Virus record (IMG/VR): IMGVR_UViG_3300038550_000080
Span: 1 to 36,528 of that record
DNA: 36,528 nucleotides
DNA from: a virus
Strand: one strand, 5' to 3'
In this document: piece by piece, positions 3,479-25,670 of the stretch
Layout of the letters: every line of letters begins with the position of its first letter
Numbering within the stretch: position 1 is the first letter of the stretch
Position numbers and translations under genes: made by a program
Notes under the pieces: generated by a model
Told to the model about the DNA's origin: nothing
The model's input: only the letters and a program-made list of their open reading frames with translations
Database searches by the model: none

Positions 3479-3723
3479 ACCTGTGGACAGCGTTTCAGCA
3501 GATTGTGAAGACGGGCGGGCCGCTGATGATTGGCGAGGTGGTGAGCATTGAATCCGCTTTTGGCGATCAGCGTTGTACGGTGGAACTGCTCCCCAGCGGC
3601 GCAACGCTGGCAAACGTCATCGCCACGGGCTATGCACTGGAAATCGGCCAGCGATGGGTCATTCAGGACGGGAGGATTGTGGACACCGCGCCAGCAGGGA
3701 CGGTGCTGACGGCGGAGGTGTAG
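3475..3723 (+). CDS. Small tail/baseplate protein, unknown (possible OB-fold)
   Basis: An 82-residue protein whose ATG overlaps the stop of the preceding hub-like gene (ATGA). Residues about 18-75 (GEVVSIESAFGDQRCTVELL and onward) alternate hydrophobic strands with Gly turns, as in small OB-fold or spike-base proteins at phage tail tips. That fold guess is weak. It is the last gene of the rightward tail run, 11 bases ahead of a strong terminator. Confidence 0.65.
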   Translation: MNLWTAFQQIVKTGGPLMIGEVVSIESAFGDQRCTVELLPSGATLANVIATGYALEIGQRWVIQDGRIVDTAPAGTVLTAEV

Positions 3724-3734
3724 GGCTTGCTCTT

Positions 3735-3770
3735 GACACATGGATTGAGAATCAAATTATGTGTCTTTTT
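3735..3770 (+). terminator. Rho-independent terminator closing the tail operon
   Basis: GACACAT (3735-3741) pairs with ATGTGTC (3759-3765). The intervening loop holds an inner TTGA-GAA-TCAA stem (3745-3755), and five T residues follow at 3766-3770. It sits between convergent operons. A second hairpin, TGTAAG (3781-3786) with CTTACA (3792-3797), lies next to the end of the leftward operon but has no T-tract on either strand. Confidence 0.8.
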
Positions 3771-3808
3771 ACATTGAACCTGTAAGCGATCCTTACACAT
3801 TGCTTTCA

Positions 3809-4603: not shown

Positions 4604-6333
4604 GTCGTGACCTCATCGAATTTGTATTTCACAATTTCGGGGAAGCCGCGCGCATCACGAGGCGGGCGGACGTGGATATAAGTGGGTTGTGTCAGGTTAT
4701 GGGTTCCTGCAAAACTAAATTTTCTAATGGCCTCGTCAATGTTTTCAGGAAAAATCGAATCAATACATCTATCGATAGGCTCGTCAGAAAAACGCTCCCT
4801 CCACCACTTCTCGGCCTTCTTTCTCGGATAGCTACCCGGCGGATGTTCAAGACAGACCCACTCACTGGCGACTCTCAGGAATCCTGAGAAGTAGTCTACT
4901 CGCAGCGTCGGGATGCCGGACTTGCCGACATGTTTGGAATAGGCGACGCGGGTCACTTCATAGCGGATGGGTGGGGGTAACGGAGCAATGCCGGCGATGA
5001 TCGCGTCTTTTCCCGCGCGCGGCGGCGGGACGCCGGGCTTTTCGCCCGGCTCAAAGGCATAGCCGCATTCAGGACAAGGATTAGCGAAGACGGAAATTTC
5101 TTTTTTGCATTGCGGGCAGGTCTTTGTGGGTTCCGACTTTTTCTGGCCAGGCGCTTTGAGTGTGAGCCGGTCAATGGGTCCGTGCCGACCGACGTTGCCG
5201 CAGAAGTCCAGCACCAGACAGCCGCGCTTCCGGTCACTGTCCTGGCTGCACTTGGATTCTGTGGGGCGCATCCCGCGCCCACACATCTGTACCCACAGCA
5301 CCGGGCTAATCGTGGGGCGGGCGATGATGAGGCAGTCGGTGACCGGCGCATCAAAACCCGTGGTCAACACGCCGACGCTCACCAGCGCAGTCAAACGCCC
5401 GGTTTTAAATTCGCGAATAAACTGGGCGCGGTCACGGGAAGACGTATCTCCTGTCACCACTTGTGCAGAAATGCCGCGCCAAAGCAAATTATTGGCGGTA
5501 TTTTGCGCCGCATCAACGCCTGCACAGAACACGAGCCAATGCCGGCGGCCATCGGCCTGAGCCAGGGGAATCGCCTCATCCAGAATAGCGTCAATGACTT
5601 CTTCGCGCGCCATTAAGGCGTTCAGTTGATCCGCCTGGTAGTCGCCGTTTTGAATTTTGATCTCTTTTAAATCGACTTGATAATTTGTCGGCTGCGGCCA
5701 GAGCGCGGCTAAGTAATCGCTGTTGATCAACGATACAATAGATGCAGACAGATCATAGGCAATGTCGGTAAACAGCCGATTCTCGCCTTTAATAAGAGAC
5801 TGATATCCCGCCGTAGTCGTTTTTGTGGCCTGGACATATCGATAAGGTGTGGCGGTCAGGCCGATTAGCCGTAAGTGCGGGTTCAGTTCGGTCAGATCAC
5901 GAATGAAGCGCCGATAGGTGCCGTCATGATCCAGTGGGACGCGATGCGCTTCATCGATAAACACCAGTTCAATCGGCTGCTCGTAACTCGACAGAGCCTT
6001 GGCTTTGTTGTGTACTGACTGAATGCCGCAAAACAGAATGGGGCGGTCGGTGTTGCGCTGATTCAGTCCAGCGCTATAGACGCCCACCGGCGCATCCGGC
6101 CAGACGCGCAACAGCTTGTCGAGGTTCTGACTGATCAATTCTTTGACGTGGGTCAGCATCAACACGCGGGCGGTCGGGTAATCCGCCAGAATCTTCTGAA
6201 TCAAGGCGGCGATCACCAGGCTTTTCCCGGTGCCGGTGGGCATGACGATCAACGGGTGTCCAGGATTACCGCTCTCGAAATAGTCGAGAACTGATTGCAC
6301 AGCAGCGGTTTGGTAGCTACGCAGTTGCATCAT
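4600..6333 (-). CDS. SF2 DEAD/DEAH-box helicase, RadD-like
   Basis: A 577-residue ATP-dependent helicase. Walker A is PTGTGKS (32-38), the DEAH box is at 127-130, motif III TATP at 160-163, and motif VI QMCGRGMR at 349-356. A four-cysteine zinc ribbon follows: C406, C409, C420, C423. This order (UvrB/Res-like core, helicase C domain, zinc ribbon) matches RadD/YejH-type proteins, which act in branched-DNA processing. The start is supported by GGAGA ahead of the ATGATG at 6333. It overlaps the nuclease gene upstream by 17 bases and the Myb-repeat gene downstream by four, so the set is probably co-translated. In context it would unwind DNA for phage recombination or replication; the substrate is not shown by the sequence. 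Confidence 0.9.
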   Translation of the reverse strand: MMQLRSYQTAAVQSVLDYFESGNPGHPLIVMPTGTGKSLVIAALIQKILADYPTARVLMLTHVKELISQNLDKLLRVWPDAPVGVYSAGLNQRNTDRPILFCGIQSVHNKAKALSSYEQPIELVFIDEAHRVPLDHDGTYRRFIRDLTELNPHLRLIGLTATPYRYVQATKTTTAGYQSLIKGENRLFTDIAYDLSASIVSLINSDYLAALWPQPTNYQVDLKEIKIQNGDYQADQLNALMAREEVIDAILDEAIPLAQADGRRHWLVFCAGVDAAQNTANNLLWRGISAQVVTGDTSSRDRAQFIREFKTGRLTALVSVGVLTTGFDAPVTDCLIIARPTISPVLWVQMCGRGMRPTESKCSQDSDRKRGCLVLDFCGNVGRHGPIDRLTLKAPGQKKSEPTKTCPQCKKEISVFANPCPECGYAFEPGEKPGVPPPRAGKDAIIAGIAPLPPPIRYEVTRVAYSKHVGKSGIPTLRVDYFSGFLRVASEWVCLEHPPGSYPRKKAEKWWRERFSDEPIDRCIDSIFPENIDEAIRKFSFAGTHNLTQPTYIHVRPPRDARGFPEIVKYKFDEVTT

Positions 6334-7318
6334 GGCTTGTCTCCTGTAGTCCGCTCACCCATGTATCGCCGGAATCTTTACAGCGGTAAGTAATCGCGCC
6401 CGTCACCTTGTCCGCGCCAATGGCGTCGCAACTTCGGATTAAATCCGGGTGAAAGGCATGACAGAGACAGCCTTGGCGCTGCTCTTCAATATCGATGACC
6501 CGACGATGCAGGTCACACGTCCAGGGCTGGGCTTCATCAAGATGGGCCGTGGCGTGGGCGCAGGTGCGGCAGTTCACGACGGGCAGTTTCAGGCCGTGAC
6601 AGAGGGCGTGAAAGTCACATCGCTTGCACTGATACCATCCGGAGTCTTCACTGATGCGCAATGGTGGGCGATTCGCGCTGATCACGTCGCGGGCTTTCTG
6701 CAGGTAGGTTTTTGCCTTGGTGGGCTGGTAGTCCGTCCGGCAACTGATAATGTCCCGGACGCCGGGCGTGGCGACCGTGAGGTAATGCCGAGTGAGTTTC
6801 AGGGCGTACATGTAGATTTGCGCCTGAGCGAAGTAGGTCTCATCCCAGGCTTCCAGCGCCTCTTTTTCGCCTTTCTCTTCCTTGAGTTTTTCGAGCTTGC
6901 GGACTTTCGTCTCGTTGCAAACCTTGGCTTCCCAGACATGCGGGGTTTTTGAGGCTTGATAAAGTCCCTCGATAACGCCGTCCAAGTGCCCTCGAAAATG
7001 ACCGCCCAGCAAAACAAAGCCAATTTGTTCGCCGGGCTGTGCCGGGTCTTCTGTCCAGAGTGAGACGCCGGGAACCTGGCGCAGCATTTCGATAAGCACC
7101 TGTTCACCCCGATGGCCGTCGTTGATCCGACGCAACCCGGAAGCCGAAATGGCGCGCCGCAAGACCCAGCGAAAGCCGTACCAGAGCTTGCGGCTGCACG
7201 GCTCTCCGATTTGGCTGGCGCCCAAATAAGGTCGCGGCGCTTCGCTGGATGCGGCTTCGATTACCGCATCCAGCGCCGCCAGGGTCGGGTCGCTAGTAGA
7301 GTGAGCGAGTTCGACCAT
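6317..7318 (-). CDS. PD-(D/E)XK nuclease with Fe-S cluster, Cas4/RecB-like
   Basis: A 333-residue nuclease. The active site is visible as GHLDG (Asp113), WEAK (Glu130, Lys132) and the following helix QAQIYMYA (166-172). One cysteine before the core (Cys41, EPCSRK) and three after it (Cys231, Cys234, Cys240 in CKRCDFHALC) match the four-Cys iron-sulfur pattern of Cas4 and AddB-type exonucleases. A second cysteine-rich tail (C250, C253, C268, C284, C286) may bind zinc. It sits between a DUF669/SSB-like gene and a RadD-like helicase, so it is probably the end-resecting exonuclease of the phage recombination module. The long extra C-terminus beyond the Fe-S region is unusual for a minimal Cas4. 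Confidence 0.85.
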   Translation of the reverse strand: MVELAHSTSDPTLAALDAVIEAASSEAPRPYLGASQIGEPCSRKLWYGFRWVLRRAISASGLRRINDGHRGEQVLIEMLRQVPGVSLWTEDPAQPGEQIGFVLLGGHFRGHLDGVIEGLYQASKTPHVWEAKVCNETKVRKLEKLKEEKGEKEALEAWDETYFAQAQIYMYALKLTRHYLTVATPGVRDIISCRTDYQPTKAKTYLQKARDVISANRPPLRISEDSGWYQCKRCDFHALCHGLKLPVVNCRTCAHATAHLDEAQPWTCDLHRRVIDIEEQRQGCLCHAFHPDLIRSCDAIGADKVTGAITYRCKDSGDTWVSGLQETSHDATA

Positions 7319-7327
7319 AGCGGGGTC

Positions 7328-7927
7328 TCAGAACGTAATGTCATCGTCAAAGTCGCCCGCGGGTTCCAGCGCAGGGGCTGGCGCAGGGGCGGCGGGTTTC
7401 TTCCAGGGCGGAATTTTGCCTTCCGGCTTTGCCGCCGGCCTGGGCGGGGCGGCGGGGGACGGGGTGGGTGTGGCGCGGGCTTGGCGGGCCGGAGGGGGTA
7501 CGGCGGCTTGCGGGGCGCTGGTGGCTTGCGTTTCGCCCAGCCGCATCCATTTCTTGATCTGGTTCTTCTCAGCAAACTCGCCTTTCGCCGGGATATAGGC
7601 GACATGGATCAGGTGCGGGATGCCGTGCAGCGTCTCACTGTCTTTGATGCGCAGCATGCCGGTAGCTCGGCAAATCGCCGACAGTTCGCGTTGCGCAATC
7701 TCTTCCGCCTTGGAATTGGCGTTCTGGATGTTGAGGTTGTGCCAGACATAGCGGCCCTTGGCGGGACCATCAATCACTTGGAAAGTCAGCGCCAAATACT
7801 GTCCAGAGCCATTCTTTGTAGTGCGAAATTCGCTGTTCGTGATGATCACTGGATAGTCGCCAGCGGGCAGGGCGGAAAAGTCAGCAGGTTCTACGGTCGT
7901 TGCGTCAAAGTCGCCTAAGTAAGCCAT
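7328..7927 (-). CDS. DUF669-family single-stranded DNA-binding-like protein
   Basis: A 199-residue protein. The N-terminal 130 residues carry the DUF669 pattern: an acidic start, LPAGDYPVIITNSEFRTTKN, an ALTFQVIDGPAKGRYVWHNL segment and a following helix before IPHLIHVAYI. This family is common beside Sak4-like ATPases in phages and is thought to be the cognate single-strand-binding partner. The C-terminal third is a Pro/Ala linker ending in an acidic tip (DFDDDITF), like the protein-interaction tail of SSB. The ATG at 7927 has only a weak GAG upstream. Binding to single-stranded DNA is inferred from the family and the acidic tail. Confidence 0.8.
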   Translation of the reverse strand: MAYLGDFDATTVEPADFSALPAGDYPVIITNSEFRTTKNGSGQYLALTFQVIDGPAKGRYVWHNLNIQNANSKAEEIAQRELSAICRATGMLRIKDSETLHGIPHLIHVAYIPAKGEFAEKNQIKKWMRLGETQATSAPQAAVPPPARQARATPTPSPAAPPRPAAKPEGKIPPWKKPAAPAPAPALEPAGDFDDDITF

Positions 7928-7960
7928 GGTCGTGCTCTCGTTCGTTCGTTCAGGGGAAGA

Positions 7961-8701
7961 TCAAAAAGGAATGGGCAGGGCCTGATTCAGCGCGGCCCAG
8001 GACATAGGGATTTCCGGCGGAAGGCTATAGCGGTTTTTGGCGAGGTAGGCCGGGCGTTCGCCGGTATGCAGAAGTCGTTCGCCCGACGCCAAAGCTTTTT
8101 TCACGCTTTGGTCTTTGCGCGCGCCGACCAGCTCGCTTTTCACGAACGTCTTGAAATTGGCAAATAACACAGCATCACACCATTCCTGCACCAACGCACT
8201 TGCGCGGGCTTGCAGCTTGGGTTGATACCGTTCAAAACTGTCGCCGTCCGGCGGATCGAAGCGCTTGACTTCGCAGTGTGCCAGCAGCACCACGGTCATG
8301 CCGATGCCGCGCAGGGCGGCAAAGCCGTCGAGGATCACCCGCCATTGTTCAGCCGCCAATAGCGCGTCTTTGCCATAACTGAGCGCTTTATCGTCGTGGG
8401 TTTCCTTGACGTGTTGCTGCACGATCAGGTCGAGCCAGTCGGCGGAATCGAGCACCACGGTCTTAAAGGCGTGCTGTTCGTTAACTAGAACGCCAATGGC
8501 GCTGAAGACCTCGTCCAGCGTGGTCGCCAGAGGGAAGGCTGGGGTTTCCAGCATCCCTAAGCCGTCTTCGGTTTGGATGATGACGGGTGTCGGGAACTGG
8601 CTGGCGAGGGTGGTTTTGCCGACGCCGTGCGGGCCGTAGATCATGAGTCTCGGCGGCGGGGTGCGCGGACCGGATGTGATCGAAGACAGGTCAAAGGCCA
8701 T
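7961..8701 (-). CDS. Sak4-like RecA-family ATPase (AAA_24)
   Basis: A 246-residue ATPase if started at the ATG at 8701, which overlaps the previous TGA (TGATG); a GTG one codon earlier (8704) is also possible. AGGAAG lies upstream within the preceding gene. Walker A is GPHGVGKT (about 23-30) and Walker B is TVVLDSADWL (about 81-90), followed by a sensor-like strand ending VVLLAHCEVKRF. This is the phage AAA_24 family, whose best known member is Sak4, a RecA-core single-strand annealing or pairing protein that works with a phage SSB. The DUF669 gene directly downstream fits that partnership. A nucleotide-binding role is well supported; the recombination role is from family knowledge. Confidence 0.88.
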   Translation of the reverse strand: MAFDLSSITSGPRTPPPRLMIYGPHGVGKTTLASQFPTPVIIQTEDGLGMLETPAFPLATTLDEVFSAIGVLVNEQHAFKTVVLDSADWLDLIVQQHVKETHDDKALSYGKDALLAAEQWRVILDGFAALRGIGMTVVLLAHCEVKRFDPPDGDSFERYQPKLQARASALVQEWCDAVLFANFKTFVKSELVGARKDQSVKKALASGERLLHTGERPAYLAKNRYSLPPEIPMSWAALNQALPIPF

Positions 8702-9084
8702 CACTTCACTTCCTGCACGGTGATTTGGACGCTGCCGGGCTTGATGATCAATGCTTCGCTCAACACGGCGTAGGTCTCAGGTTCATTGTTTTGCAGCCAC
8801 TTGACGCCCTTCTCGTCCAAAGAGGGCTTCATTTCGACAGGCCAAAGGTCTTCGGGAATACGGCCTTTTACCTGTTCCCAGGCATCCCAATTCATGGAAC
8901 GAATCAGCGGCGCTTTGACGGTGACTTTCCATTGGTCAGCCGCATAAGTTTTCTGTCCTTCGGCGGTATGGCCGGTGAGCGCCTGGATTTTGGCGGCAAT
9001 GGCGCGGCGCTGGTCAGCCATAATGGCCTCCTGGGCCTTGGCGCGGACATAGGCAGCCGCGAGTTCAGCGAGTTCTTTCGACAT
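8701..9084 (-). CDS. Conserved phage protein, DUF7173-like
   Basis: A 127-residue protein. Residues 1-35 look helical (ELAELAAAYVRAKAQEAIMA), then a compact segment with TYAADQWKVTV and MNWDAWEQVKGRIPEDLWPV, ending in strands (SVQITVQEVK). Proteins of this shape are regularly encoded beside Sak4-like ATPases and SSBs in phages; I place it there by gene order and general resemblance (the DUF number is from memory). GAGGG precedes the ATG at 9084. No enzymatic motif is visible. It may help load or regulate the recombinase, which is a guess from neighbourhood only. Confidence 0.65.
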   Translation of the reverse strand: MSKELAELAAAYVRAKAQEAIMADQRRAIAAKIQALTGHTAEGQKTYAADQWKVTVKAPLIRSMNWDAWEQVKGRIPEDLWPVEMKPSLDEKGVKWLQNNEPETYAVLSEALIIKPGSVQITVQEVK

Positions 9085-9094
9085 TTCAAAACCC

Positions 9095-9565
9095 TCAAAC
9101 CAGAAAAAATGCCGTCAATACGGCGGTGATAATCAAAAACGCCGTCAGTGCCAGGGATTCGGGGATACGATCTACCCATGACAGGCTGTCGCGTTCATCA
9201 GATAGAGGCGGGCGCAAGTAGGTCGCCATTGGCGGGCGCGGGTCGGGAATGGGTTTGTCGATGGTCGTCGCCATCGGATGGGTGCCGGTACGGGGGCCCG
9301 TCAGCGGGCAGGGACCGGCCATATCGACGATGGCGCTCATCACGCGATCCTGCGCGGCGTCGATGGCGTCGAGGGCGTCGAGGGCGTCGTCCTGGCGCAG
9401 GATGTCGTTCGCCAAGCGGGGGATGTGCGGTCTGGATTCCCGCGCAATATCCCATCTATCGATCTCTCTGAGCGCGGCCTGGTGGCGGCGAATTAAATCT
9501 CGCTCGGCGCGGCCCTGGGCCTGGCGGGCGCTGACGCGGGTTTCAACGATCACAGGGTTTTTCAT
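9095..9565 (-). CDS. Unknown early protein with C-terminal membrane anchor
   Basis: A 156-residue protein. The first 80 residues are charged and probably helical, with a DALDALDAIDAAQDRV stretch suggesting a coiled coil. A Pro/Thr-rich linker follows, and residues about 136-156 are strongly hydrophobic (LALTAFLIITAVLTAFFLV), a likely tail anchor with the bulk in the cytoplasm. GGAGG precedes the ATG at 9565, which overlaps the stop of the preceding small gene (ATGA). I recognise no family. An early phage protein anchored at the inner membrane could act in host takeover or exclusion, but nothing here proves that. Confidence 0.6.
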   Translation of the reverse strand: MKNPVIVETRVSARQAQGRAERDLIRRHQAALREIDRWDIARESRPHIPRLANDILRQDDALDALDAIDAAQDRVMSAIVDMAGPCPLTGPRTGTHPMATTIDKPIPDPRPPMATYLRPPLSDERDSLSWVDRIPESLALTAFLIITAVLTAFFLV

Positions 9566-9711
9566 ACTTCCTCCAATCGCCGCCAGGCGCGGGTCCGGGC
9601 ATGGCGTTTCATAAATGTGGTGACGCGGATTGGCGTCCAGTGGGCGTAACGCTCACGCCGTTTCTTGGCGTGCAGCGCGGCTTTTTCGCTGTAGGTGTGG
9701 TGTTTCTTCAT
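9562..9711 (-). CDS. Small basic protein, unknown
   Basis: A 49-residue, very basic protein starting MKKHHTYSEKAALHAKKRRE and ending RAWRRLEEV. About one third of the residues are Lys, Arg or His, so nucleic-acid binding is plausible. Its ATG overlaps the TGA of the upstream small gene, and its own TGA overlaps the ATG of the next gene (both ATGA), which supports it as a real coupled gene despite its size. No family recognised. Confidence 0.6.
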   Translation of the reverse strand: MKKHHTYSEKAALHAKKRRERYAHWTPIRVTTFMKRHARTRAWRRLEEV

Positions 9712-9878
9712 GCCTCTACGCCCCAGGCAAGAGGCAGCCGTCGATACGGCTCGGGTATGAGGCAGCCGTCGATACGGCTATGGAAGATCACGTCTTGTTT
9801 GCCGGCGGCATTGATCACGCAGATCAATGTCCAGTGCCAGTCATTGGCGAGGAACCACAACTCTTCTTCTTTCGTCAT
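9708..9878 (-). CDS. Small protein, first gene of the leftward operon, unknown
   Basis: A 56-residue protein beginning MTKEEELWFLANDWHWTL. AGGAG sits ten bases before the ATG at 9878, a good ribosome site. The C-terminal part contains a 21-bp duplication read in two different frames (SRIDGCL and EPYRRLPL), so the original protein was probably shorter or ended differently. It is the first gene downstream of the leftward promoter and is coupled by ATGA to the next gene. Function unknown. Confidence 0.6.
   Translation of the reverse strand: MTKEEELWFLANDWHWTLICVINAAGKQDVIFHSRIDGCLIPEPYRRLPLAWGVEA
9731..9779. repeat. 21-bp direct repeat pair, each containing a hairpin
   Basis: Bases 9731-9751 and 9759-9779 are identical over 21 bp and lie 28 bp apart, so they are read out of frame with each other in the small gene on the minus strand. 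Each copy contains AGCCGT-CGAT-ACGGCT, a 6-bp inverted repeat with a 4-base loop. Confidence 0.85.
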
Positions 9879-10040
9879 GTTCGCTGCTCCTGAAAAAGTC
9901 CCGGTCGGCGTCAGAAGGAACCAACCGGGAAACTACCCAGAGGAGGAATTTCGCCAACGTCCCTGTCGGGCTGGCCCGACCCCTAATCCGTTAATCCCCT
10001 TTGCTGGGCATCCGGCGGGTGATGGGGATGGGTTGAGAGA
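9879..10040 (-). other. Leader of the leftward early operon with two hairpins
   Basis: About 155 bases separate the leftward promoter from the first leftward gene. No convincing gene lies here. GTCGGGC (9965-9971) and GCCCGAC (9974-9980) form a perfect 7-bp inverted repeat. CCCGGT (9900-9905) and ACCGGG (9924-9929) form a second stem with two further pairs inside. Neither is followed by a T-tract in the leftward direction, so they look more like RNA structure or anti-termination signals than terminators. Confidence 0.45.
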
Positions 10041-10069
10041 ATGTTAGTAAAAAGCTAAGGTCTATGCAA
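10041..10069 (-). promoter_or_regulatory. Leftward early promoter
   Basis: On the minus strand TTGCAT (10069-10064) and TAACAT (10046-10041) are separated by 17 bases, a good sigma-70 layout. The TTAG-N7-CTAA element at 10044-10058 overlaps the -10 hexamer, so a regulator bound there would block the promoter. It would drive the genes from 9878 leftward. Confidence 0.6.
10044..10058. promoter_or_regulatory. Operator half-site pair TTAG-N7-CTAA (left operator)
   Basis: TTAG at 10044-10047 and CTAA at 10055-10058 with a 7-base spacer match the core of the larger palindrome at 10126-10150. A degenerate third site (ATCG-N7-CTAA, 10069-10083) lies 25 bp further right. Repeated sites in the divergent region next to a Cro-like gene suggest operators for that protein. 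Confidence 0.5.
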
Positions 10070-10125
10070 TCGTTTTTTACTAAGATTGTGAAAAAAAATT
10101 TAGGCAAGCGGAATCCTCTTGCTTT

Positions 10126-10150
10126 TTATCTTAGCAAAGAACTAAGATAA
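10126..10150. promoter_or_regulatory. Perfect 9-bp inverted repeat operator before the Cro-like gene
   Basis: TTATCTTAG (10126-10134) and CTAAGATAA (10142-10150) are exact complements around a 7-base spacer, ending four bases before the Cro-like ATG. TTGCTT (10119-10124) and TAAGAT (10143-10148) could form a rightward promoter with an 18-base spacer. The transcript would then begin at or next to the ATG, which fits the lack of a Shine-Dalgarno there. The promoter call is tentative; the palindrome is certain. Confidence 0.65.
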
Positions 10151-10154
10151 CAAT

Positions 10155-10367
10155 ATGAACAAAACGCCTCTTCAAAGAGCAATCCAGGCCATTGGATTGA
10201 CTCGTCTCAGTGAAGCAGTGGGGGTTCGCCCGCCGACGATCCATGTCTGGCTACGGAGCACAGGCCGCGTGCCTGCTCACCGGGTCATTGCCGTGGAACG
10301 GGCGACGGGTATCAGTCGCCACGAACTGCGTCCCGATATTTATCCCATCGAAGAGCGGGCCGCATGA
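10155..10367 (+). CDS. Cro/YdaS-like helix-turn-helix regulator
   Basis: A 70-residue protein. Residues about 5-40 match the YdaS/Cro pattern: LQRAIQAIGLTRLSEAVGV, a turn, then PPTIHVWLRSTGRVPAHRV, with the recognition helix in the second segment. The following VIAVERATGISRHELRPD is typical of YdaS-type phage Cro proteins. It sits beside TTAG-N7-CTAA operators and opposite the leftward operon, the usual place for a lambda-type switch. No Shine-Dalgarno is visible, so it may be translated from a leaderless message. I see no CI-type partner in the window, so it may be the only transcription switch present. Confidence 0.85.
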   Translation: MNKTPLQRAIQAIGLTRLSEAVGVRPPTIHVWLRSTGRVPAHRVIAVERATGISRHELRPDIYPIEERAA

Positions 10368-10402
10368 TATGCCCAGACGGGCCGAATCTCGGATGAAATC
10401 GG

Positions 10403-10519
10403 ATGAAAGCGCTTGAACTTCTCGAAATGATCATCTTGGCTCTGATACTGATGACCTTGCCAGTCGGAATGCTGTTAGGCGCGGGCTGGCTAATCGGCCA
10501 ATTGTTGGGGGCGCTATGA
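10403..10519 (+). CDS. Small single-pass membrane protein, unknown
   Basis: A 38-residue protein starting MKALELLEMI. Nearly all of residues 8-38 are hydrophobic with small residues (LALILMTLPVGMLLGAGWLI), so it is a likely inner-membrane peptide. Its TGA overlaps the ATG of the next gene (ATGA at 10516), which supports it as a real coupled gene. The ribosome site is weak. No family recognised. Confidence 0.5.
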   Translation: MKALELLEMIILALILMTLPVGMLLGAGWLIGQLLGAL

Positions 10520-10758
10520 CCCTCGACGAAGCCATTTCCCGGATGTTTTGTTGTGCCACGGCTGAGAGGTGCGCCCGCGAAGAGGCGTGTTTTGTCGTCG
10601 TGAAGTGGGCTAGGGACAGACGGACTCAGGAACGGCTGGCGGAAGAGATGGCGCGGGCCGCCAATGCGCCCGTCGATAGCGATGGAGTCGTAACGGATTA
10701 CGCCCCGCAGTGGGAAGCGAACTGTTGTGGGATACCCATTGACTGGGATGCCGCATGA
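10516..10758 (+). CDS. Small cysteine-containing early protein, unknown
   Basis: An 80-residue protein overlapping its neighbours by four bases on both sides (ATGA at 10516 and 10755). It has six cysteines (FCC, AERC, EEAC, NCC) but no clean CxxC zinc-finger spacing. The central part (VVVKWARDRRTQERLAEEMA) is probably helical. It lies between a Cro-like regulator and the primase/helicase, so a small replication or regulatory helper is possible. No family recognised. Confidence 0.6.
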   Translation: MTLDEAISRMFCCATAERCAREEACFVVVKWARDRRTQERLAEEMARAANAPVDSDGVVTDYAPQWEANCCGIPIDWDAA

Positions 10759-13058
10759 ACACCGCCCTCGTGATTCCCCATCCGCAGCCCGACCTGGCGC
10801 AAGCCGAACGGTTTTTAACGTGTTTGGATGAAGAGGCCGAGTTCTTCACCTTCCAGACCTTTGACGACCTCAAGCAACGCAAGGACCAGAGTCTCGCCAA
10901 GATTTTGCACGGGACGCTGGAGCAACACCATACGGATTTGGGCCGGCTGCAATGGCGGCGGGCGGGCGTCTATGTGACGGTCAACGCTACGGACGGAAAA
11001 GGCCGCAAGCTGGCGAACATGGTCAAACCGCGCGCCATCTGGTGCGAGTGGGACCGTTGCGGCGAAGCGTTGCCGCAATGGCCGCTGGACCCACAGGTGG
11101 TGGTTGAGTCCAGCCCCGGCAAGTTTCATTGCTACTGGTTCGCCTGGGACTTGGAATGGGCCGACTTTGATCTACTGATGCAGGTCATGGTCGCCTGGGG
11201 ATCAGACAAGAATGCCAAGGATCGCGCGCGGGTGTTGCGCTTGCCGGGGTTCTGGCACCAGAAAAGCGATCCCCCGTGGCAAGTGCGCATCGTCGTCGAG
11301 AACGAGCGGATGCCGTATTCGCGCGACGAGCTGCTGGCCGCTTTTCCAATCACCTCGCAGCCGCTGGAACTGCTGCCGCCGCCGCCGACGCCGGAAAAAG
11401 AGCATCACCACTGGATGAGCGTGGTCATGCGCCTGGCCGGCGAGCATGGCGCGCGAACCTGGTCCGATTTAAAAACCGGGCGGCACAACCAAATCATCAG
11501 CCTGGGCCACGAACTGGCTTCGCGCGGCGTTCCGGAATCCTATTTCGACGAGGCGTTACGCGCGTTCGAGCGTGCTATGCGCCCGACCAACGCCAATGGC
11601 GAAGTCGAGGGGATGAATTGGAACAACGAGCGCCAAGCGATCCTGCACGGCTACAAAACCGCAGCGGGGAAACCGACCGTCGCGCATGGCGCGCAAGTGG
11701 CTGAGGCGCTGTTGAAGAATCAGGAACAGCAATCCCGCCAAGCGGCGCAAGCCGTCCAGGACGAGCGTCCAGGCATCCCCCCGTTTCCGGCGGAACTGCT
11801 TGATTTGCCGCCGGGGCCCGTGCGGGATTATGTGGACTGGGTGAACGCGACCGGGCCGTGTGTGCAGCCGGTCTTGGCAATCGCCAATGCGCTGGCGCTG
11901 TGGGGCGTGATCATTGGCCGCACCGCGCAAACCGAAACCGGGCTGCGCACCAATCTCTACACGCTGGGGATCGCGCCGTCTGGAACGGGCAAGGACCACG
12001 CCCGCAAGCGCGCCAAGCAACTGCTTCACGATGCCGGATTGACGGAACGCCTGGGCGGCGAAAACCTCGCTTCCGATAGCGGCTTGCTGGACGCCCTACA
12101 CCGTTCGCCGGCTTGCCTGTTTCAGATCGACGAACTGGGCCGCATTTTCAAGACCATTACCAAATCCGACAAGGCCCACCTGGCCGGGATTACCACGGCG
12201 CTGTTGACGCTGTACTCCAGCGCCGATGGCCTGTTCCTCGGCAAAGAGTACGCGACCCAGGAACGCAAGGACATTGATCAGCCGTGCTGTGGGGTGTACG
12301 GCACCACGGTAGAAACGCACTTCTTCAAGGCGCTGACCCAGGACGAAGCGGAAGACGGCTTGCTGGCGCGGATTCTGATCTTTACCGGCGAGGCGGACCC
12401 CGACGAACAAGACGTGACGCCGATTCCGCCGCCCGCTTCATTGGTCGCCACCGTGCAAACGCTGGCGCGCCGGGCGATTAATGCGCAGCTACAAGGCAAC
12501 TTGGATAGTTTGCGCCCGAACCCATCCCGGTATATCTTTACTCCGGCAGCCCGGGCGCTGTTCGCCGAGTTGAAAGCCTGGATCAAGGCGCGGCGCGGCG
12601 ATCACCAGCGCCGGCAGATCAGCGCCATTTGGAATCGTTGCTGGGAAAACGCCGCCAAGGTCGCCTTGATCCTAGCTGCCAGTCGCCTGGACGGGCCGGA
12701 ACAGATTGATCAGCGGGATGCGCAGTATGGCATTGCCTTGACGCGCTGGTGCTGTGACGTGATGGTGGCCTGCATTGCTCAGTACGTGGGCGAAAACGAG
12801 GCGGAAACTACCAGTAAGCGCGTCGAACGGATCATTCGCCAGGCCGGCGCGGACGGGATCACCCTCAATCAGTTGTATGGCAAAACCCGGTTTCTGAAAA
12901 AGCGGGAACGCGCGGAAATGCTGGAAGACCTGGAAATCAGCCACACGATCTTTCGTCAATCCGAAAAAGCGCAAGGCCAGGGTGATCGTGCGGTGCTGCG
13001 GTTTACTCATGGCGCGTTCGCAGTAAACAGCAGTAAACAGCAAGTAAACAGCAAGTAA
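10755..13058 (+). CDS. Replication protein: RepB-type primase fused to DUF3987 helicase-like domain
   Basis: A 767-residue protein. Residues about 30-200 resemble RepB/AEP-type primases: acidic WCEWDR near 96-101, SSPGKFHCYW near 118-127 and DRARVLRLPGFWHQ near 155-170. Residues about 370-650 form a DUF3987 ATPase with Walker A APSGTGKD near 406-413, an acidic FQIDELGR strand (Walker B-like) and an ESxxxE-free sensor region. The C-terminus (about 690-760) looks like a winged-helix segment. The fusion would prime and unwind DNA at the phage origin. The origin lies immediately downstream: four iteron copies begin inside its last codons (SSKQQVNSK), so gene and origin evolve together. The ATG overlaps the previous TGA. 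Confidence 0.88.
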   Translation: MNTALVIPHPQPDLAQAERFLTCLDEEAEFFTFQTFDDLKQRKDQSLAKILHGTLEQHHTDLGRLQWRRAGVYVTVNATDGKGRKLANMVKPRAIWCEWDRCGEALPQWPLDPQVVVESSPGKFHCYWFAWDLEWADFDLLMQVMVAWGSDKNAKDRARVLRLPGFWHQKSDPPWQVRIVVENERMPYSRDELLAAFPITSQPLELLPPPPTPEKEHHHWMSVVMRLAGEHGARTWSDLKTGRHNQIISLGHELASRGVPESYFDEALRAFERAMRPTNANGEVEGMNWNNERQAILHGYKTAAGKPTVAHGAQVAEALLKNQEQQSRQAAQAVQDERPGIPPFPAELLDLPPGPVRDYVDWVNATGPCVQPVLAIANALALWGVIIGRTAQTETGLRTNLYTLGIAPSGTGKDHARKRAKQLLHDAGLTERLGGENLASDSGLLDALHRSPACLFQIDELGRIFKTITKSDKAHLAGITTALLTLYSSADGLFLGKEYATQERKDIDQPCCGVYGTTVETHFFKALTQDEAEDGLLARILIFTGEADPDEQDVTPIPPPASLVATVQTLARRAINAQLQGNLDSLRPNPSRYIFTPAARALFAELKAWIKARRGDHQRRQISAIWNRCWENAAKVALILAASRLDGPEQIDQRDAQYGIALTRWCCDVMVACIAQYVGENEAETTSKRVERIIRQAGADGITLNQLYGKTRFLKKRERAEMLEDLEISHTIFRQSEKAQGQGDRAVLRFTHGAFAVNSSKQQVNSK

Positions 13059-13279
13059 ACAGCAGAGCATCAAGAGCGAGAATCGCTAGGCAGCAAGCGG
13101 ATGATCGAAGTAAACAGAGTAAACAGCATACGCGATGCAGGGTTTACCGGAAGAAACCGGATAGGCGCTCTAATGCTGTTTACTCTGTTTACACTGTTTA
13201 CATATAATACATATATATATTATATACTTATATAATAAGTAAACAGCAAGTAAACAGCAAAAGACCCGAGTAAACAGCA
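13022..13279. other. Iteron-type replication origin (oriV-like)
   Basis: Twelve copies of an 11-bp iteron, consensus AGTAAACAGCA, lie here. Nine are perfect: forward at 13022, 13032, 13043, 13054, 13118, 13238, 13249 and 13269, and reverse at 13174-13184. Three variants are at 13109 (forward) and about 13183 and 13192 (reverse). Spacings of 9, 10, 11 and 20 bp put many copies on the same helix face. Between reverse and forward sets lies a 37-bp stretch (13202-13238) made only of A and T except two C, a likely melting site. This is the arrangement of plasmid and some phage origins. The stretch 13059-13286 holds no gene. Confidence 0.85.
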
Positions 13280-13286
13280 AACCGCA

Positions 13287-13733
13287 ATGGCTCACACGCT
13301 CAAGCTCACATCACCCACCGTGCTGGAATCCGACCTGCAACGGCATATCGTAGAGTATCTGCGGCATGAACAAGCCCGGGGCCGGGTCGGCTGGTTCGCC
13401 CGCATCAACGGCGGCAAAGCCCGACTCATGGGGGGTTTCTGGGTGAAGTTCTATCGACTGTGGATTCCGGCGGCACAGGAAGTGAGCGCGGGCTATAGCG
13501 ACTTACATGGCCTTTATGGGCCACGGAGCGGCTCTCCGGGGCTTTATTTCGCGTTAGAGGTTAAACAACCCGGGGAAAAGCCCACAGACGCTCAGACGGC
13601 GTTTTTGGCGGCTGTCCGTGAGTCCGGCGGCGTCGGGGCAGTGGTGCGCAGTATTGAAGACGTAAAGTCTTTGCTGTTCGGCGAGATCGATATTTTGAGA
13701 GATAGCCGTCCTGCAACGGATGACCTGAAATGA
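13287..13733 (+). CDS. VRR-NUC domain nuclease
   Basis: A 148-residue protein of the VRR-NUC family within the PD-(D/E)XK superfamily. Visible core residues are SDLHGL (Asp72), FALEVKQPG (Glu91, Lys93) and DAQ (Gln103), followed by the closing GGVGAVVRS strand. Such small phage proteins are thought to be structure-selective or Holliday-junction-type nucleases acting in replication intermediates. The ATG at 13287 has no clear Shine-Dalgarno and lies eight bases after the last iteron; a GTG at 13320 is an alternative start. Its position just after the origin fits a role in processing replication or recombination forks. Confidence 0.85.
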   Translation: MAHTLKLTSPTVLESDLQRHIVEYLRHEQARGRVGWFARINGGKARLMGGFWVKFYRLWIPAAQEVSAGYSDLHGLYGPRSGSPGLYFALEVKQPGEKPTDAQTAFLAAVRESGGVGAVVRSIEDVKSLLFGEIDILRDSRPATDDLK

Positions 13734-13744
13734 GGAAACCCGGA

Positions 13745-13921
13745 ATGATGACTGATAAAGCGCGTCAGGCGCAATGCGACTGCGGGCACACCATCACGCT
13801 AACGAAAGAAACCATGGGGGGGCCGCCGGGCGTGGCGTTCTACTGCCCTGTTTGCCGCCGGACATGGCGGGTCTGGCAATTGGTTGTACGCAGCAATCGC
13901 CATGGGGTTCGCCATGAGTGA
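13745..13921 (+). CDS. Small zinc-ribbon-like protein, unknown
   Basis: A 58-residue protein. Two cysteine pairs, CDCGH near residue 12 and CPVC near residue 34, suggest a zinc ribbon. GAGGAAA lies eight to ten bases ahead of ATGATG at 13745/13748, which favours this start over an earlier ATG at 13730 that overlaps the nuclease stop. The remainder is basic with aromatic residues (RRTWRVWQLVV), so nucleic-acid binding is plausible. Family not identified. Confidence 0.6.
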   Translation: MMTDKARQAQCDCGHTITLTKETMGGPPGVAFYCPVCRRTWRVWQLVVRSNRHGVRHE

Positions 13922-14222
13922 AATGCGGGCGACTTACATTCCCTGCGCGTCAGGCAACAACGCGCAAACCGACTGTCTCTTTCAGATTCATGGATCGCTG
14001 ATCGAAGTCATCGGCCATCCTATTATGCACTTTTGCCCCGATGAGGCTCGACAGGCCGCGCAAACACTTTGGACCATGGCGGATAGCATTGAAGGCCGCA
14101 AAGCGCCCAGAGGCGATACTGAGGCGGTTTTGTCGTTGATTGTTGCCGCCGATGAGATGGTGCGTGATGCGACCCGTGAAGCCGCGCCGGTTGCTCATGG
14201 GGACCACGGGAGTGATAGATGA
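13914..14222 (+). CDS. Unknown phage protein
   Basis: A 102-residue protein beginning MSEMRATYIPCASG. The ATG at 13914 overlaps the previous gene's stop by eight bases and is preferred to an in-frame ATG at 13884. The first half is strand-like (TDCLFQIHGSLIEVIGHPI), the second helical (DEARQAAQTLWTMADSIEG). Its TGA overlaps the holin ATG. No motif recognised. Confidence 0.55.
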   Translation: MSEMRATYIPCASGNNAQTDCLFQIHGSLIEVIGHPIMHFCPDEARQAAQTLWTMADSIEGRKAPRGDTEAVLSLIVAADEMVRDATREAAPVAHGDHGSDR

Positions 14223-22156: not shown

Positions 22157-22194
22157 TAGTAGTAGGGCGGGCAATGCCCCACCTGCACTACTGC
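22155..22194. repeat. Left, degenerate copy of REP-like palindrome
   Basis: Shares the AGTAGTAGTAGGG core and GGGCAATGCCC centre with the perfect palindrome at 22957-22997, but the right arm is degenerate. The stop codon of the reverse-strand gene (22188-22190) lies in its right arm. It may end transcription of that gene and of the head operon. Confidence 0.65.
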
Positions 22195-22685
22195 GGGGAT
22201 TGCTTGGAGATTTTGCCCACATTGAAGGGCGTGTACGGTTTGAGACCCAGGCTGGCGCAGGTTTCCTCATAGGCGCGGTCCAGTCGCCGCTGATCCGGCG
22301 CAGGTTCTTGCGCGTTCAGCGCATGAAACGCCTGCTCGGCTTCGGCCAGGTGGGCGTCATCAGTCGCCGGCAACCGCCCCAAGAACAAAATCCACTGTTT
22401 TTTCAATTCCGCATGGGTCATCAGTCGGTTTAGCATGCCGAAGGCCAGGAGCGCTCCGTTCATGCCCGCCACACTCAGCGCCAGCCCCGCAACCAGCCAC
22501 GTTTGCGCCGGCTGCCAATCCGCCGGAAACAAGGAACCCAACGTGGCAAACGCGGCGCTCGACAGCAGCAACGACACGAAGGCCGTCCAGTTCAGGAACT
22601 GACCGTAGAACCGCTCCAGGCTTTCGTGATAGCGGATATTCATTCGCCCTTGAAACAGCAATTCATGGCGAGTCAGCGCAGTCAT
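22188..22685 (-). CDS. Reverse-strand two-TM membrane protein (SLATT-like moron candidate)
   Basis: A 165-residue protein if started at the ATG at 22685, where GGAG lies nine bases upstream; a longer form from 22826 would add a Pro-rich, poorly supported leader. An N-terminal helix with GRMNIRYHESLERFYGQFLN precedes two hydrophobic segments (WTAFVSLLLSSAAFATLGSL and WLVAGLALSVAGMNGALLAF). A cytoplasmic helical tail ends in RAYEETCASLGLKP. This layout resembles SLATT-type two-TM proteins linked to defence and abortive infection; similarity is by eye only. It is the only minus-strand gene within the structural region and lies between two REP-like palindromes, so it looks like an acquired moron. 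Confidence 0.7.
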   Translation of the reverse strand: MTALTRHELLFQGRMNIRYHESLERFYGQFLNWTAFVSLLLSSAAFATLGSLFPADWQPAQTWLVAGLALSVAGMNGALLAFGMLNRLMTHAELKKQWILFLGRLPATDDAHLAEAEQAFHALNAQEPAPDQRRLDRAYEETCASLGLKPYTPFNVGKISKQSPQ

Positions 22686-22956
22686 GGTTTTTTCTCCGGG
22701 GGATGGTGGCGGTGGAATCAGGCGCGGCGAATAATGTTCATGAAGAGTTTGACCGTGCCGTTCCTGATTGGTGGCGCGATCCGGCGGTTTAGAGGGGGGT
22801 TGACGATCAGCGTCGGGTTTTCCCATAGGGAGTTAAGTCTCCGCAGCGACGCAGACGAAGGAAAGAGCGGCAGGTGGCCGTCTGCGGGAAGCCACTTTTC
22901 GGGAGCGACCCTAGCCGTTCCTCTATTCTAACTGAACAGCCCGTAGGCACCGAGTA
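22686..22956. other. Gene-free stretch upstream of the reverse-strand gene
   Basis: Together with the palindrome that follows, this gives more than 300 bases without a convincing gene. It should contain the promoter of the reverse-strand gene, but I could not find a good -35/-10 pair. CGCAGACG (22850-22857) and CGTCTGCG (22879-22886) form an 8-bp inverted repeat with a 21-base loop. Frames open across it have no ribosome site or recognisable protein features. Confidence 0.5.
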
Positions 22957-22997
22957 AGCAGTAGTAGTAGGGTGGGCAATGCCCACCCTACACTGCT
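22957..22997. repeat. Right, perfect copy of REP-like palindrome
   Basis: GTAGGGTGGGCA (22967-22978) and TGCCCACCCTAC (22980-22991) are exact complements around a single A. AGCAGT (22957-22962) and ACTGCT (22992-22997) extend the stem across a 4-base AGTA bulge. Palindromes with this GGGTGGGCA core are, from memory, scattered between genes in many bacterial chromosomes, which suggests the segment came from a host. It lies 24 bases ahead of the gpG-like gene. Confidence 0.85.
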
Positions 22998-23465: not shown

Positions 23466-23495
23466 CCGCCCGCTTTTTTGCCTTGACTTTAGGAA

Positions 23496-23519
23496 AAACC
23501 TGTATACTCATACAGGTTT
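23496..23519. promoter_or_regulatory. LexA/SOS-box-like palindrome before the protease/scaffold gene
   Basis: A perfect 10-bp inverted repeat with a 4-base centre: AAACCTGTAT (23496-23505) and ATACAGGTTT (23510-23519). Its core CTGTATACTCATACAG (23500-23515) fits the gammaproteobacterial LexA consensus CTGT-N8-ACAG and differs from the E. coli recA box only in the central four bases (from memory). TTGACT lies at 23483-23488 as a possible -35, though the best -10 (TATACT, 23503) is only 14 bases away. A terminator for the gpG-like gene is an alternative reading, but there is no T-tract beyond the arm. Confidence 0.7.
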
Positions 23520-23541: not shown

Positions 23542-24495
23542 ATGCAGACCGCTCGCGCCATCAACCTGCCGCTCGATGGTCAGCTCCCGGACTGGATTCA
23601 ACTCCTGCCCGCCGGGCCGCGCGTCCATGGCGCCGATGGCCGCGCCTGGACCCTCGACGATCCCGCCGCGTTGATCACTGCCTTTCAACAGCGCCACGCC
23701 CCTCTGGTGGTGGACTGGGAACACGCCAGCGAACACCGCGCCCCGCATGGCCTGGACGCGCCCGCCGCCGGCTGGATTCACGCGCTGGAGCTGCGCAACG
23801 GCCAAGTCTGGGGCAACGTCGAATGGACCGGCCGCGCCGTGCAACAGATTCAAGAGAAGGAATACCGCTACCTGTCGCCGGTCTTCAACTATCGCAAAGA
23901 CACCCGCCAGATCGTCGCCCTGACCAGCGTCGCCCTGACCAATCAACCCAATCTCCCCCTCACTGCTCTCAATCGCGAGGAATCGCCCATGCCGCTCTCT
24001 GACGCCCTTTGTCAGGCTCTGGAAATCCCCGCTGGCGCGGAAGAGGTGACCGCCATCACCCGCGTCAACACCCTCAAGGACGCCCTGCGCGCCGCCAACG
24101 CCCAGGCGAAGCAACCGCCGCTGGACACCTTTGTGCCGCGCGCCGATTACGATGCGCTGCTGGCCCGCGCCACGAATGCCGAGCAAAAGCTGGCCGAGGT
24201 CGAACAGGCCCAGCGCCAGGCGCGGATCGCCGCCCTGCTCCAGAGGGCGCTGACCGAGCGCAAGATCAGCCCGGCCACTCAGGAGTACTACCAGGCGATG
24301 TGCAAAGTCGATGGCGGCATCGAGGCGTTCGAAACGTTCTTGAGCAAAGCGCCGCCGCTGTTGCCGGACCCCAAGCCACAAGCCGGTGCGGCCGCCGGTG
24401 CGGCGAGCCAAGCCCTCAACCGCGCCACATTCTCCGCCCTCTCGTCCCAGGCTCAGCACGACTTTGTCCGCCAGGGCGGCCAGGTCACTGATTAA
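23542..24495 (+). CDS. Prohead protease-scaffold, Mu I-like (gp32)
   Basis: A 317-residue protein of the Mu I family. The N-terminal protease half (about 1-145) shows PLVVDWEHASEH near 53-64, PAAGWIHALELRNGQVWGNV near 75-94 and the YLSPVFNYRKDTRQIVAL segment near 112-131. The C-terminal half is a helical scaffold (ATNAEQKLAEVEQAQRQARI near 210-230). In Mu the scaffold Z is also made separately from an internal start; the same is likely here at 23989. It cleaves scaffold during head maturation. It is the first gene after the LexA-like site. Confidence 0.87.
   Translation: MQTARAINLPLDGQLPDWIQLLPAGPRVHGADGRAWTLDDPAALITAFQQRHAPLVVDWEHASEHRAPHGLDAPAAGWIHALELRNGQVWGNVEWTGRAVQQIQEKEYRYLSPVFNYRKDTRQIVALTSVALTNQPNLPLTALNREESPMPLSDALCQALEIPAGAEEVTAITRVNTLKDALRAANAQAKQPPLDTFVPRADYDALLARATNAEQKLAEVEQAQRQARIAALLQRALTERKISPATQEYYQAMCKVDGGIEAFETFLSKAPPLLPDPKPQAGAAAGAASQALNRATFSALSSQAQHDFVRQGGQVTD
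23989..24495 (+). CDS. Nested scaffolding protein from internal start (Mu Z-like)
   Basis: An in-frame ATG at 23989 (codon 150 of the protease gene) is preceded by GAGGAA at 23977-23982, six bases away, a strong ribosome site inside the coding region. The product would be 168 residues and contain only the helical scaffold region. Mu encodes its scaffold Z in the same way, so this is a supported inference rather than a proven gene. Confidence 0.6.
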   Translation: MPLSDALCQALEIPAGAEEVTAITRVNTLKDALRAANAQAKQPPLDTFVPRADYDALLARATNAEQKLAEVEQAQRQARIAALLQRALTERKISPATQEYYQAMCKVDGGIEAFETFLSKAPPLLPDPKPQAGAAAGAASQALNRATFSALSSQAQHDFVRQGGQVTD

Positions 24496-24509: not shown

Positions 24510-25670
24510 ATGGCTACGAACACTCTCAGCAACCTCATCCCGGCGATCTACGGCGCGCTGGATGTGGTCTCGCGCGAACTGGTGGGGCTGATCCCCGCCG
24601 TGACCCTCGACGCCAGCGCCAATCGCGTGGCGCAGAACCAAACCCTCTACCTGCCGGTCGCCCCGGCCAGCAGCGCCGGCGACATCACCCCCGCCGCGAC
24701 GCCGCCGGCGCTGTCCGGCCAGACCATCGCCAGCCAGTCAGTGACGATCAGCAAGTACCGCCGCGTGTTCTTCTCCTGGGAGGGCGAGGAACAGGCGGCG
24801 GTCAACAGCGGCCCCGGTTTCCAGGCCATCCTGCGCAATCAGTTCGCGCAAGCGATGCGCACGCTGGTCAACGAGGTCGAGGCGGATTTGGCCGCCCTGT
24901 ACACCAAGGCCAGCCGCGCCTACGGCACGGCGGGCACCGCGCCGTTTGGCACCGCCGGGGATTACACCGACGCAGCGAACGCGCGGAAGATTCTGGCCGA
25001 CAACGGCGCGCCGCTCTCGGATTTGCAACTGGTGGTCAACACCGCCGCCGGGGCGAACCTGCGCGGCAAACAGGGCGGGCGCGGCGTCGATTTGGAAGGC
25101 ACCGCCGCGCTGTTGCGCCAGGGCGTGCTGCAGGACATTCACGGCTTCATGGTGCGCGAGTCGGCGCAGATCGTGAACCACACCAAGGGCGCGGGCACCG
25201 GCTATGACTTTGCCGCCGCCGGTGAAGCGGTGGGGCAAACCACCCTCAGCGTGGAAGGCGGCACGGTCAACACCACCGGCATCAAGGCGGGCGACATCAT
25301 CACCCACGCCGGCGACACGGTGAACAAGTACGTGGTGACTACCGGCACGACCTCGACCTCGGGCGATATCGCCATCGGCGCGCCGGGCCTGCTGATCGCG
25401 GGCGCGGACGCCAATGAAATCACCATCGGCAACAGCTACGCCGCCAACCTGGCGTTCGCCCGCTCGGCCCTCGTGCTGGCGACCCGCCTGCCGCGCGTCC
25501 CCGAGGGCGGCGATCAGGCCACTGACCGGCAAACCCTCTCCGACCCGGTCTCCGGTCTCAGCTTCGATGTGGCGATGTACCCCGGCTATCACGCCAACAG
25601 CTACGAGGTCAGCCTCGCCTGGGGCGTGGCGTGCATTAAGCCCGAACACCTCGCCATCCTGCTGGGTTGA
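24510..25670 (+). CDS. Major capsid protein, P22 coat-like
   Basis: A 386-residue protein. It opens with a helical arm (SNLIPAIYGALDVVSRELVG) followed by SANRVAQNQTLYLPVAPA, as in P22 gp5-type coats. A central segment near 230-300 (GQTTLSVEGGTVNTTGIKAG, then TVNKYVVTTG) would be the inserted I-domain-like region, and SYEVSLAWGVACIKPEHLAI closes the protein in the same way as P22 coat. AAGGAG precedes the ATG. A P22-like coat with Mu-type portal, F and I proteins is an informative mix. Alternatives are other HK97-fold coats; the coat role is secure from position and size. Confidence 0.83.
   Translation: MATNTLSNLIPAIYGALDVVSRELVGLIPAVTLDASANRVAQNQTLYLPVAPASSAGDITPAATPPALSGQTIASQSVTISKYRRVFFSWEGEEQAAVNSGPGFQAILRNQFAQAMRTLVNEVEADLAALYTKASRAYGTAGTAPFGTAGDYTDAANARKILADNGAPLSDLQLVVNTAAGANLRGKQGGRGVDLEGTAALLRQGVLQDIHGFMVRESAQIVNHTKGAGTGYDFAAAGEAVGQTTLSVEGGTVNTTGIKAGDIITHAGDTVNKYVVTTGTTSTSGDIAIGAPGLLIAGADANEITIGNSYAANLAFARSALVLATRLPRVPEGGDQATDRQTLSDPVSGLSFDVAMYPGYHANSYEVSLAWGVACIKPEHLAILLG

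What the first reader, a model, noticed from the sequence alone, without database searches (positions are those of the whole stretch)
23496..23519. LexA-box palindrome driving protease/scaffold/coat genes
The sequence CTGTATACTCATACAG fits the LexA consensus and is within four central bases of the E. coli recA box as I remember it. It lies in the short gap before the Mu I-like gene, so head production may be tied to the host SOS response even though no CI repressor is seen. SOS boxes are usually at early switches, not in the middle of a structural operon.
Basis: partly seen in the sequence, partly recalled or inferred. Interest (0 to 1): 0.7.

Follow-up and report, generated by a model that had tools for sequence, protein, structure and literature searches.

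The report
Conserved inverted repeat before protease gene
The LexA-like box is really there, but in related phages the letters LexA needs are not kept while a larger mirror-image element around a promoter-like core is, so it is more likely the phage's own switch for its head genes than a link to the host's DNA-damage response.

Summary
AAACCTGTAT-ACTC-ATACAGGTTT (23496-23519) is a perfect 10-bp inverted repeat, the window's only exact CTGT-N8-ACAG, in the 76-bp gap before a Mu I-type protease gene (23542) and a P22-type coat gene. CTGTAT-N4-ATACAG is expected 0.0008 times in the window by chance. The LexA reading is not supported by comparison. A larger element, AAAC-N3-TATAnTnATA-N3-GTTT, lies 42-46 bases before the I start in 5 of 209 distinct upstream regions, including a prophage in a Competibacteraceae genome. 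The two N3 columns are exactly where LexA's CTG and CAG fall, and they vary: only this phage has both. The nearest relative (I 74%, G 88%) has no box. In 39 Competibacteraceae genomes, LexA exceeds its curated cut-off in 2 and the strict box occurs in 2, near chance; the true host is unknown. Most likely this is a phage operator/promoter at the place where Mu has its late promoter P_I, with a TATACT core and an unidentified regulator. The LexA match would then be a side effect of the repeat. SOS control is not excluded: phage GIL01 has LexA boxes in its capsid-gene promoter. An RNA hairpin is also possible. Interest is modest.

The parts
23496..23519 (.). Perfect inverted repeat AAACCTGTAT-ACTC-ATACAGGTTT, containing the LexA-like CTGTATACTCATACAG (23500-23515)
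23496..23499 (+). AAAC outer half-site, invariant in 5 of 5 carriers
23500..23502 (+). CTG: LexA-specific triplet, not conserved in relatives (ATG, CGT, CAT, TGT)
23503..23508 (+). TATACT, -10-like core; TATACT in 4 of 5 carriers, TATAGT in 1
23513..23515 (+). CAG: LexA-specific triplet, shared only with L272 (others AAT, CCA, ATG)
23516..23519 (+). GTTT outer half-site, invariant in 5 of 5 carriers
23483..23488 (+). TTGACT, -35-like, only 14 bases before TATACT; same spacing in L126 and L170 (TTGACA), absent in L171 and L272
   Evidence: no canonical promoter scored there
23474..23479 (+). Run of T before the -35-like hexamer; a T run followed by GC(C)TTG is also seen in L126, L170, L093, L172
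23022..23465 (+). Phage virion morphogenesis gene (Mu G-like, PF05069), upstream neighbour
23542..24495 (+). Mu I-like head maturation protease/scaffold gene (PF10123), first gene after the element
24510..25670 (+). Coat protein gene (PF11651), second gene after the element

Best explanation
The palindrome is the core of a phage-specific promoter/operator for the protease-scaffold-coat genes, at the place where Mu has its late promoter P_I. A TATACT core acts as the -10 element. A dimeric DNA-binding protein, probably phage-encoded, reads the flanking AAAC/GTTT half-sites and controls start-up of the I transcript. The exact LexA consensus in this one phage comes from this repeat being perfect here and from its variable triplets reading CTG/CAG. 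Shown: the repeat, its constant place before I, the conserved columns, its single copy per record. Inferred: that it is a promoter, the start site, the regulator and the direction of control.
For: Of 209 distinct regions upstream of I genes, 5 carry AAAC-N3-TATAnTnATA-N3-GTTT with 0-1 mismatch in 16, at -42 to -46 from the I start; the next best has 5 mismatches. AAAC, GTTT and TATA.T are invariant in the 5, while the LexA triplets vary. One carrier (L272) is a prophage in a Competibacteraceae genome. A matrix built from the five finds no other good site in the carriers' records. Symmetry is kept although letters change: 81% of pairs formed against 40-49% when slid, 5 pairs with both sides changed. 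All carriers lie in one supported 9-row clade (99/95). Of 35 looser matches in viral contigs, only the 3 before I genes lie in GC-rich phage DNA. Mu has the P_I promoter before gene I (PMC4461284, abstract and passages).
Against: No canonical sigma-70 promoter scores here. The -35-like TTGACT is only 14 bases from TATACT and is missing in L171 and L272. Four of the 9 clade members, including the sister L002, lack the element, so it is not needed by all. The 0-mismatch counts partly follow from deriving the pattern on these sites. The covariation does not clearly beat shuffles with 5 sequences (20 to 98 of 500 reach it). No Mor/C activator is found in the window, and no regulator has been tied to the site.
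Confidence: 0.57

Rival explanations
1. A true LexA (SOS) box: host LexA sits on CTGTATACTCATACAG over the -10 of the I promoter and is released by DNA damage, tying head production to the SOS response.
For: Full match to the 12 specified bases of the gammaproteobacterial consensus, 7.7e-4 expected by chance in the window. It overlaps a -10-like hexamer. GIL01 is a precedent, with LexA boxes in a capsid-gene promoter (PMC6182141, abstract and passages). In one Competibacteraceae genome (G028) lexA itself is preceded by CTG-N10-CAG, so LexA of that type exists in the family.
Against: The box is absent in the nearest relative, and the CTG/CAG triplets are lost in the other carriers. Among 167 loci with an I match, CTGTAT-N4-ATACAG within 600 bases upstream occurs only in the window and its own copy L001. 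LexA (TIGR00498) is over its cut-off in 2 of 39 Competibacteraceae genomes. The strict box occurs in 2 of 39, and no CTGT-N8-ACAG lies in 4 recA loci from 3 genomes. Limits: the host is unknown, completeness is not told, and the two genomes with LexA also lack the strict box.
Confidence: 0.13
2. An RNA hairpin in the leader of the I message, acting on translation, processing or attenuation rather than a DNA operator.
For: The strand folds well: z -3.9 (window), -3.7 (L126), -4.2 (L171). The distance to the start codon is constant.
Against: z is only -1.8 in L272 and -1.0 in L170. The middle three pairs are mostly unpaired outside the window. The invariant letters in the centre spell a -10 hexamer, which a loop would not need. 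No terminator scored.
Confidence: 0.17
3. No present function: an inherited or decaying promoter remnant, kept by shared descent in a few phages.
For: 4 of 9 clade members lack it; the tree needs 4 changes of the label, and 123 of 500 shuffles are as low.
Against: The I proteins of the other carriers are down to 54-59% identity with the window while 16 bases and the repeat symmetry stayed.
Confidence: 0.1

Closest known systems
Phage Mu late promoter P_I (activated by C)
   Same: Same place: directly before gene I, in the G-I gap, driving protease/scaffold and coat.
   Different: In Mu the activator site is upstream of -35 (PMC4461284, passages); here the repeat lies over the -10-like core. 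No Mor/C-family gene found in the window.
LexA/SOS boxes in a phage late promoter (GIL01 P3)
   Same: LexA-like box in the promoter of capsid genes (PMC6182141, abstract and passages).
   Different: GIL01 has tandem boxes plus gp7 and gp6; here there is a single site whose LexA-specific bases are not kept in relatives, and no LexA DNA-binding domain was found in the phage.
E. coli recA/lexA operators
   Same: Outer 12 bases of the 16-mer, as recalled.
   Different: Extended AAAC/GTTT arms are the conserved part here, not CTG/CAG.
Mu central strong gyrase site region
   Same: Same G-I gap (gyrase cut site annotated in Mu).
   Different: The window's 76-bp gap lacks the long gap and the TTTAAAC-type repeats seen in L002, Mu and others.

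Membership tests
LexA (SOS) box | Match to CTGTAT-N4-ATACAG | tested here: met
LexA (SOS) box | Box kept in relatives with the same flanking genes | tested here: not met
   absent in L002; CTG/CAG lost in L126, L171, L170 and half lost in L272
LexA (SOS) box | Host has LexA with this specificity | tested here: inconclusive
   host not known; LexA over cut-off in 2 of 39 Competibacteraceae genomes, one with CTG-N10-CAG before lexA; strict box in 2 of 39
LexA (SOS) box | Overlaps a promoter | tested here: inconclusive
   TATACT inside the repeat, but no canonical promoter
LexA (SOS) box | LexA binding and release on DNA damage | not testable with these tools
   needs binding and reporter tests
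Mu late promoter P_I | Lies directly before gene I | tested here: met
Mu late promoter P_I | Phage encodes a Mor/C-family activator | tested here: not met
   PF08765 not found in the window; found in relative record G008
Mu late promoter P_I | Activator site upstream of -35 | tested here: not met
   the repeat covers the -10-like core; layout of Mu from PMC4461284
Intrinsic terminator | GC-rich stem followed by a T run | tested here: not met
Mu strong gyrase site | TTTAAAC-type repeats in the G-I gap | tested here: not met
   no TTTTAAATG and no + strand TTTTTAAA in the window

The most novel reading that the evidence does not exclude
The conserved repeat is the operator of a LexA/UmuD-type self-cleaving repressor with changed specificity, host- or phage-borne, so that head-protein synthesis in these phages is under direct DNA-damage control, with the window's version drifting back to or retaining the classical LexA sequence. 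This would parallel GIL01 (LexA at a capsid promoter) and Acinetobacter (UmuDAb on an atypical SOS box, PMC11332147, start of abstract seen in a search listing) in hosts that mostly lack a recognisable LexA.
Probability: 0.07. Interest if true: 0.6.

Novelty: new variant of a known kind. Interest (0 to 1): 0.3.

Why it matters
If right, it corrects a tempting SOS annotation: a textbook-quality LexA box can arise inside another conserved operator, so box matches in phages should be checked against relatives. It also gives a testable, so far unassigned control site for capsid expression in Mu-headed phages that carry no C/Mor activator.

Tried and rejected
Chance palindrome: rejected, since relatives keep a repeat at the same place. 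Intrinsic terminator: rejected by scan. Part of the Mu-type gyrase-site gap: rejected for the window, which lacks that gap. A shared operator with the early YdaS/Cro-like switch: rejected, that repeat is ATCTTAG-N7-CTAAGAT. A Mu C/Mor-driven P_I: no Mor in the window. A second copy of the element elsewhere in the phage: none. An exact repeat in viral contigs: AAACCTGTAT-N4-ATACAGGTTT gave 0 stretches. Operators of S24/LexA-like genes in Competibacteraceae as a match to the element: nothing found, but my signature filter recovered a gene in only 2 of 9 loci, so this is not a test. Host assignment through the primase gene: 1 of 39 Competibacteraceae genomes, weak; no near match among phages.

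A candidate regulator was looked for: the D5-like HTH protein at 3809-4603 (phrog_323) and the YdaS-like one share about 35% identity with proteins of L126's record, but neither was found in the G033 region at E below 0.3. This is only a lead. Literature: searches for LexA with late genes or late promoters gave 0 papers for two term sets; GIL01 came up.

Full report
What is there. The window is a 36,528-base virus record of IMG/VR. The reported sequence is exactly where stated: AAACCTGTATACTCATACAGGTTT at 23496-23519, a perfect 10-bp inverted repeat around ACTC. Inside it CTGTATACTCATACAG is the only exact CTGT-N8-ACAG of the window. By base composition CTGTAT-N4-ATACAG is expected 7.7e-4 times in the window, the loose form 0.48 times. 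With one mismatch allowed, 8 loose matches are found against 7.3 expected, so only the exact form carries weight. The 76-bp gap lies between a Mu G-like virion morphogenesis gene (PF05069) and a Mu I-like protease gene (PF10123), followed by a P22-type coat gene (PF11651).

Promoter-like parts. TATACT (23503-23508) lies inside the repeat. TTGACT (23483-23488) lies 14 bases before it, too close for a usual sigma-70 promoter, and scans found no canonical promoter and no terminator in the gap. The same T run, TTGACA and 14-base spacing occur in relatives L126 and L170. L171 and L272 have the TATACT core without a -35-like hexamer.

Relatives. I collected I-gene relatives from viral contigs, one species genome per bacterium and named phages (three of its 211 records were fetched, Mu). 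The nearest, L002 (I 74%, G 88%), has a 488-bp gap with no box. For all loci held with an I match I took the upstream region: 209 distinct regions remained after removing identical ones, and 2 further regions were dropped as shorter than 60 bases. The best match to AAAC-N3-TATAnTnATA-N3-GTTT within 120 bases of the start has 0 mismatches in 4 regions, 1 in 1 region, and 5 or more in the other 204. In the same regions further upstream (207 usable), the best is 4 mismatches in 1 and 5 in 9. The pattern was drawn from the carriers, so their low counts are partly by construction; the empty range between 1 and 5 and the constant distance (-42 to -46) are not.

The five sites, AAAC|N3|core|N3|GTTT, read CTG TATACTCATA CAG (window), ATG TATAGTGATA AAT (L126), CGT TATACTGATA CAG (L272), CAT TATACTGATA CCA (L171), TGT TATACTGCTA ATG (L170). 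AAAC, GTTT and TATA.T are invariant. The triplets that define a LexA box are the variable ones. This is the main reason for not accepting the LexA reading: selection, as far as five sites show it, is on a different set of bases.

Symmetry. With 14 pairs counted, 81% of cells pair against 40-49% when the partner is slid, and 5 pairs have a change on both sides. Against shuffles of the 3' letters this is weak (20 to 98 of 500 shuffles reach the observed values), as expected with five sequences. Both a DNA operator and an RNA hairpin predict symmetry. The hairpin is strong in three of five (z -3.7 to -4.2) and weak in two (-1.8, -1.0), and the three middle pairs are mostly broken outside the window.

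Distribution. In a tree of 26 I proteins (chosen from those held) the five carriers fall in a supported 9-row clade (99/95) that also holds L002, L090, L093 and L172 without the element. A looser pattern followed by ATG hit 35 stretches in viral contigs. Three of them are the L126, L170 and L171 contigs before I genes. The other 32 are AT-rich (GC at most 0.43) and have no match to the window's I; three of these have a weak match (E 0.007) to another phage's I protein. A stricter form hit 10 stretches, 2 of them before I genes. In 39 Competibacteraceae genomes the relaxed element occurs in 2: once before I in the G033 prophage and once in G018, which I did not follow. The G033 prophage sits beside ordinary bacterial genes with an integrase-like ORF next to it (names from my reading of the translations). 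A matrix built from the five sites finds no second good site in the window, in the 40-kb stretch around the G033 prophage, or in the records of L126, L170 and L171.

Host and LexA. The host of the window is not known. The nearest cellular relatives are Competibacteraceae prophages. In 39 genomes of that family LexA (TIGR00498) matched over the curated cut-off in 2; 21 of 39 have some match, many of them partial or weak. The strict box occurs in 2 of 39 genomes. By a rough estimate of my own from genome size and GC, about that many are expected by chance. Four recA loci from three genomes hold no CTGT-N8-ACAG. On the other side, one of the two genomes with LexA has CTGATTAAATTAACAG directly before lexA, so an E. 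coli-type LexA exists in the family, and the strict pattern would miss such a box. Completeness of these genomes is not told.

Mechanism. In Mu the late promoters are lys, I, P and mom, all needing the activator C (PMC4461284, abstract and passages), and the G-I gap also holds the annotated gyrase cut site. A control site directly before I is therefore expected by position. Here, however, the repeat covers the -10-like core rather than lying upstream of -35, and no Mor/C gene was found in the phage. I propose a phage-specific P_I whose operator is AAAC/GTTT with a TATACT core; the regulator is unknown. Two phage HTH proteins are candidates, without evidence of binding. LexA control remains possible for this one phage, and GIL01 shows that LexA can sit in a capsid-gene promoter (PMC6182141, abstract and passages), so even then the finding would be a variant of something known.

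Noticed in passing
G-I gap of many Mu-like loci, e.g. L121, L136, L171, Mu itself L310:1020-1045: A pair of TTTAAAC-like (or, in Pseudomonas, GTTAGA) repeats about 11 bases apart lies within 350 bases before I in 72 of 206 distinct regions and in none of the control stretches inside or after I. Mu has it about 35-60 bases after its annotated gyrase cut site; it may be part of the strong gyrase site.
   Followed up: partly
Pseudomonas loci such as L033, L140, L168, about 120-140 bases before I: Another recurrent inverted repeat, CCCATTCTCTACGTATAGAATGGG or CATTCTATACGTATAGAATG, and a GC-rich one at the start codon ATGCCGCCA...TGGCGGCAT.
   Followed up: no
window 10128-10148: Inverted repeat ATCTTAG-N7-CTAAGAT just before the YdaS/Cro-like gene (10155-10367), a likely early-switch operator; a further TACTAAGATT half lies at about 10078-10087.
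   Followed up: no
window 22967-22991: Perfect GC-rich palindrome GTAGGGTGGGCAATGCCCACCCTAC before the G gene, resembling the GTAGGTTGGGC... repeats in the gaps of L002 and L272.
   Followed up: no
window 22188-22826, - strand: An ORF of 212 aa on the opposite strand between F and G, matching only phrog_11791 of unknown function; possible inserted extra gene.
   Followed up: no
window 197-14000: Mu-type head genes are combined with a non-Mu early region: cytosine methylase, helicase, SSB-like, AAA_24, primase; no Mor gene. No transposase was seen among the ORFs scanned.
   Followed up: partly
39 Competibacteraceae genomes: LexA is over the curated cut-off in only 2 of 39, while many carry weaker LexA-like matches, several as neighbouring pairs on one contig. 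The family may mostly lack classical LexA.
   Followed up: partly
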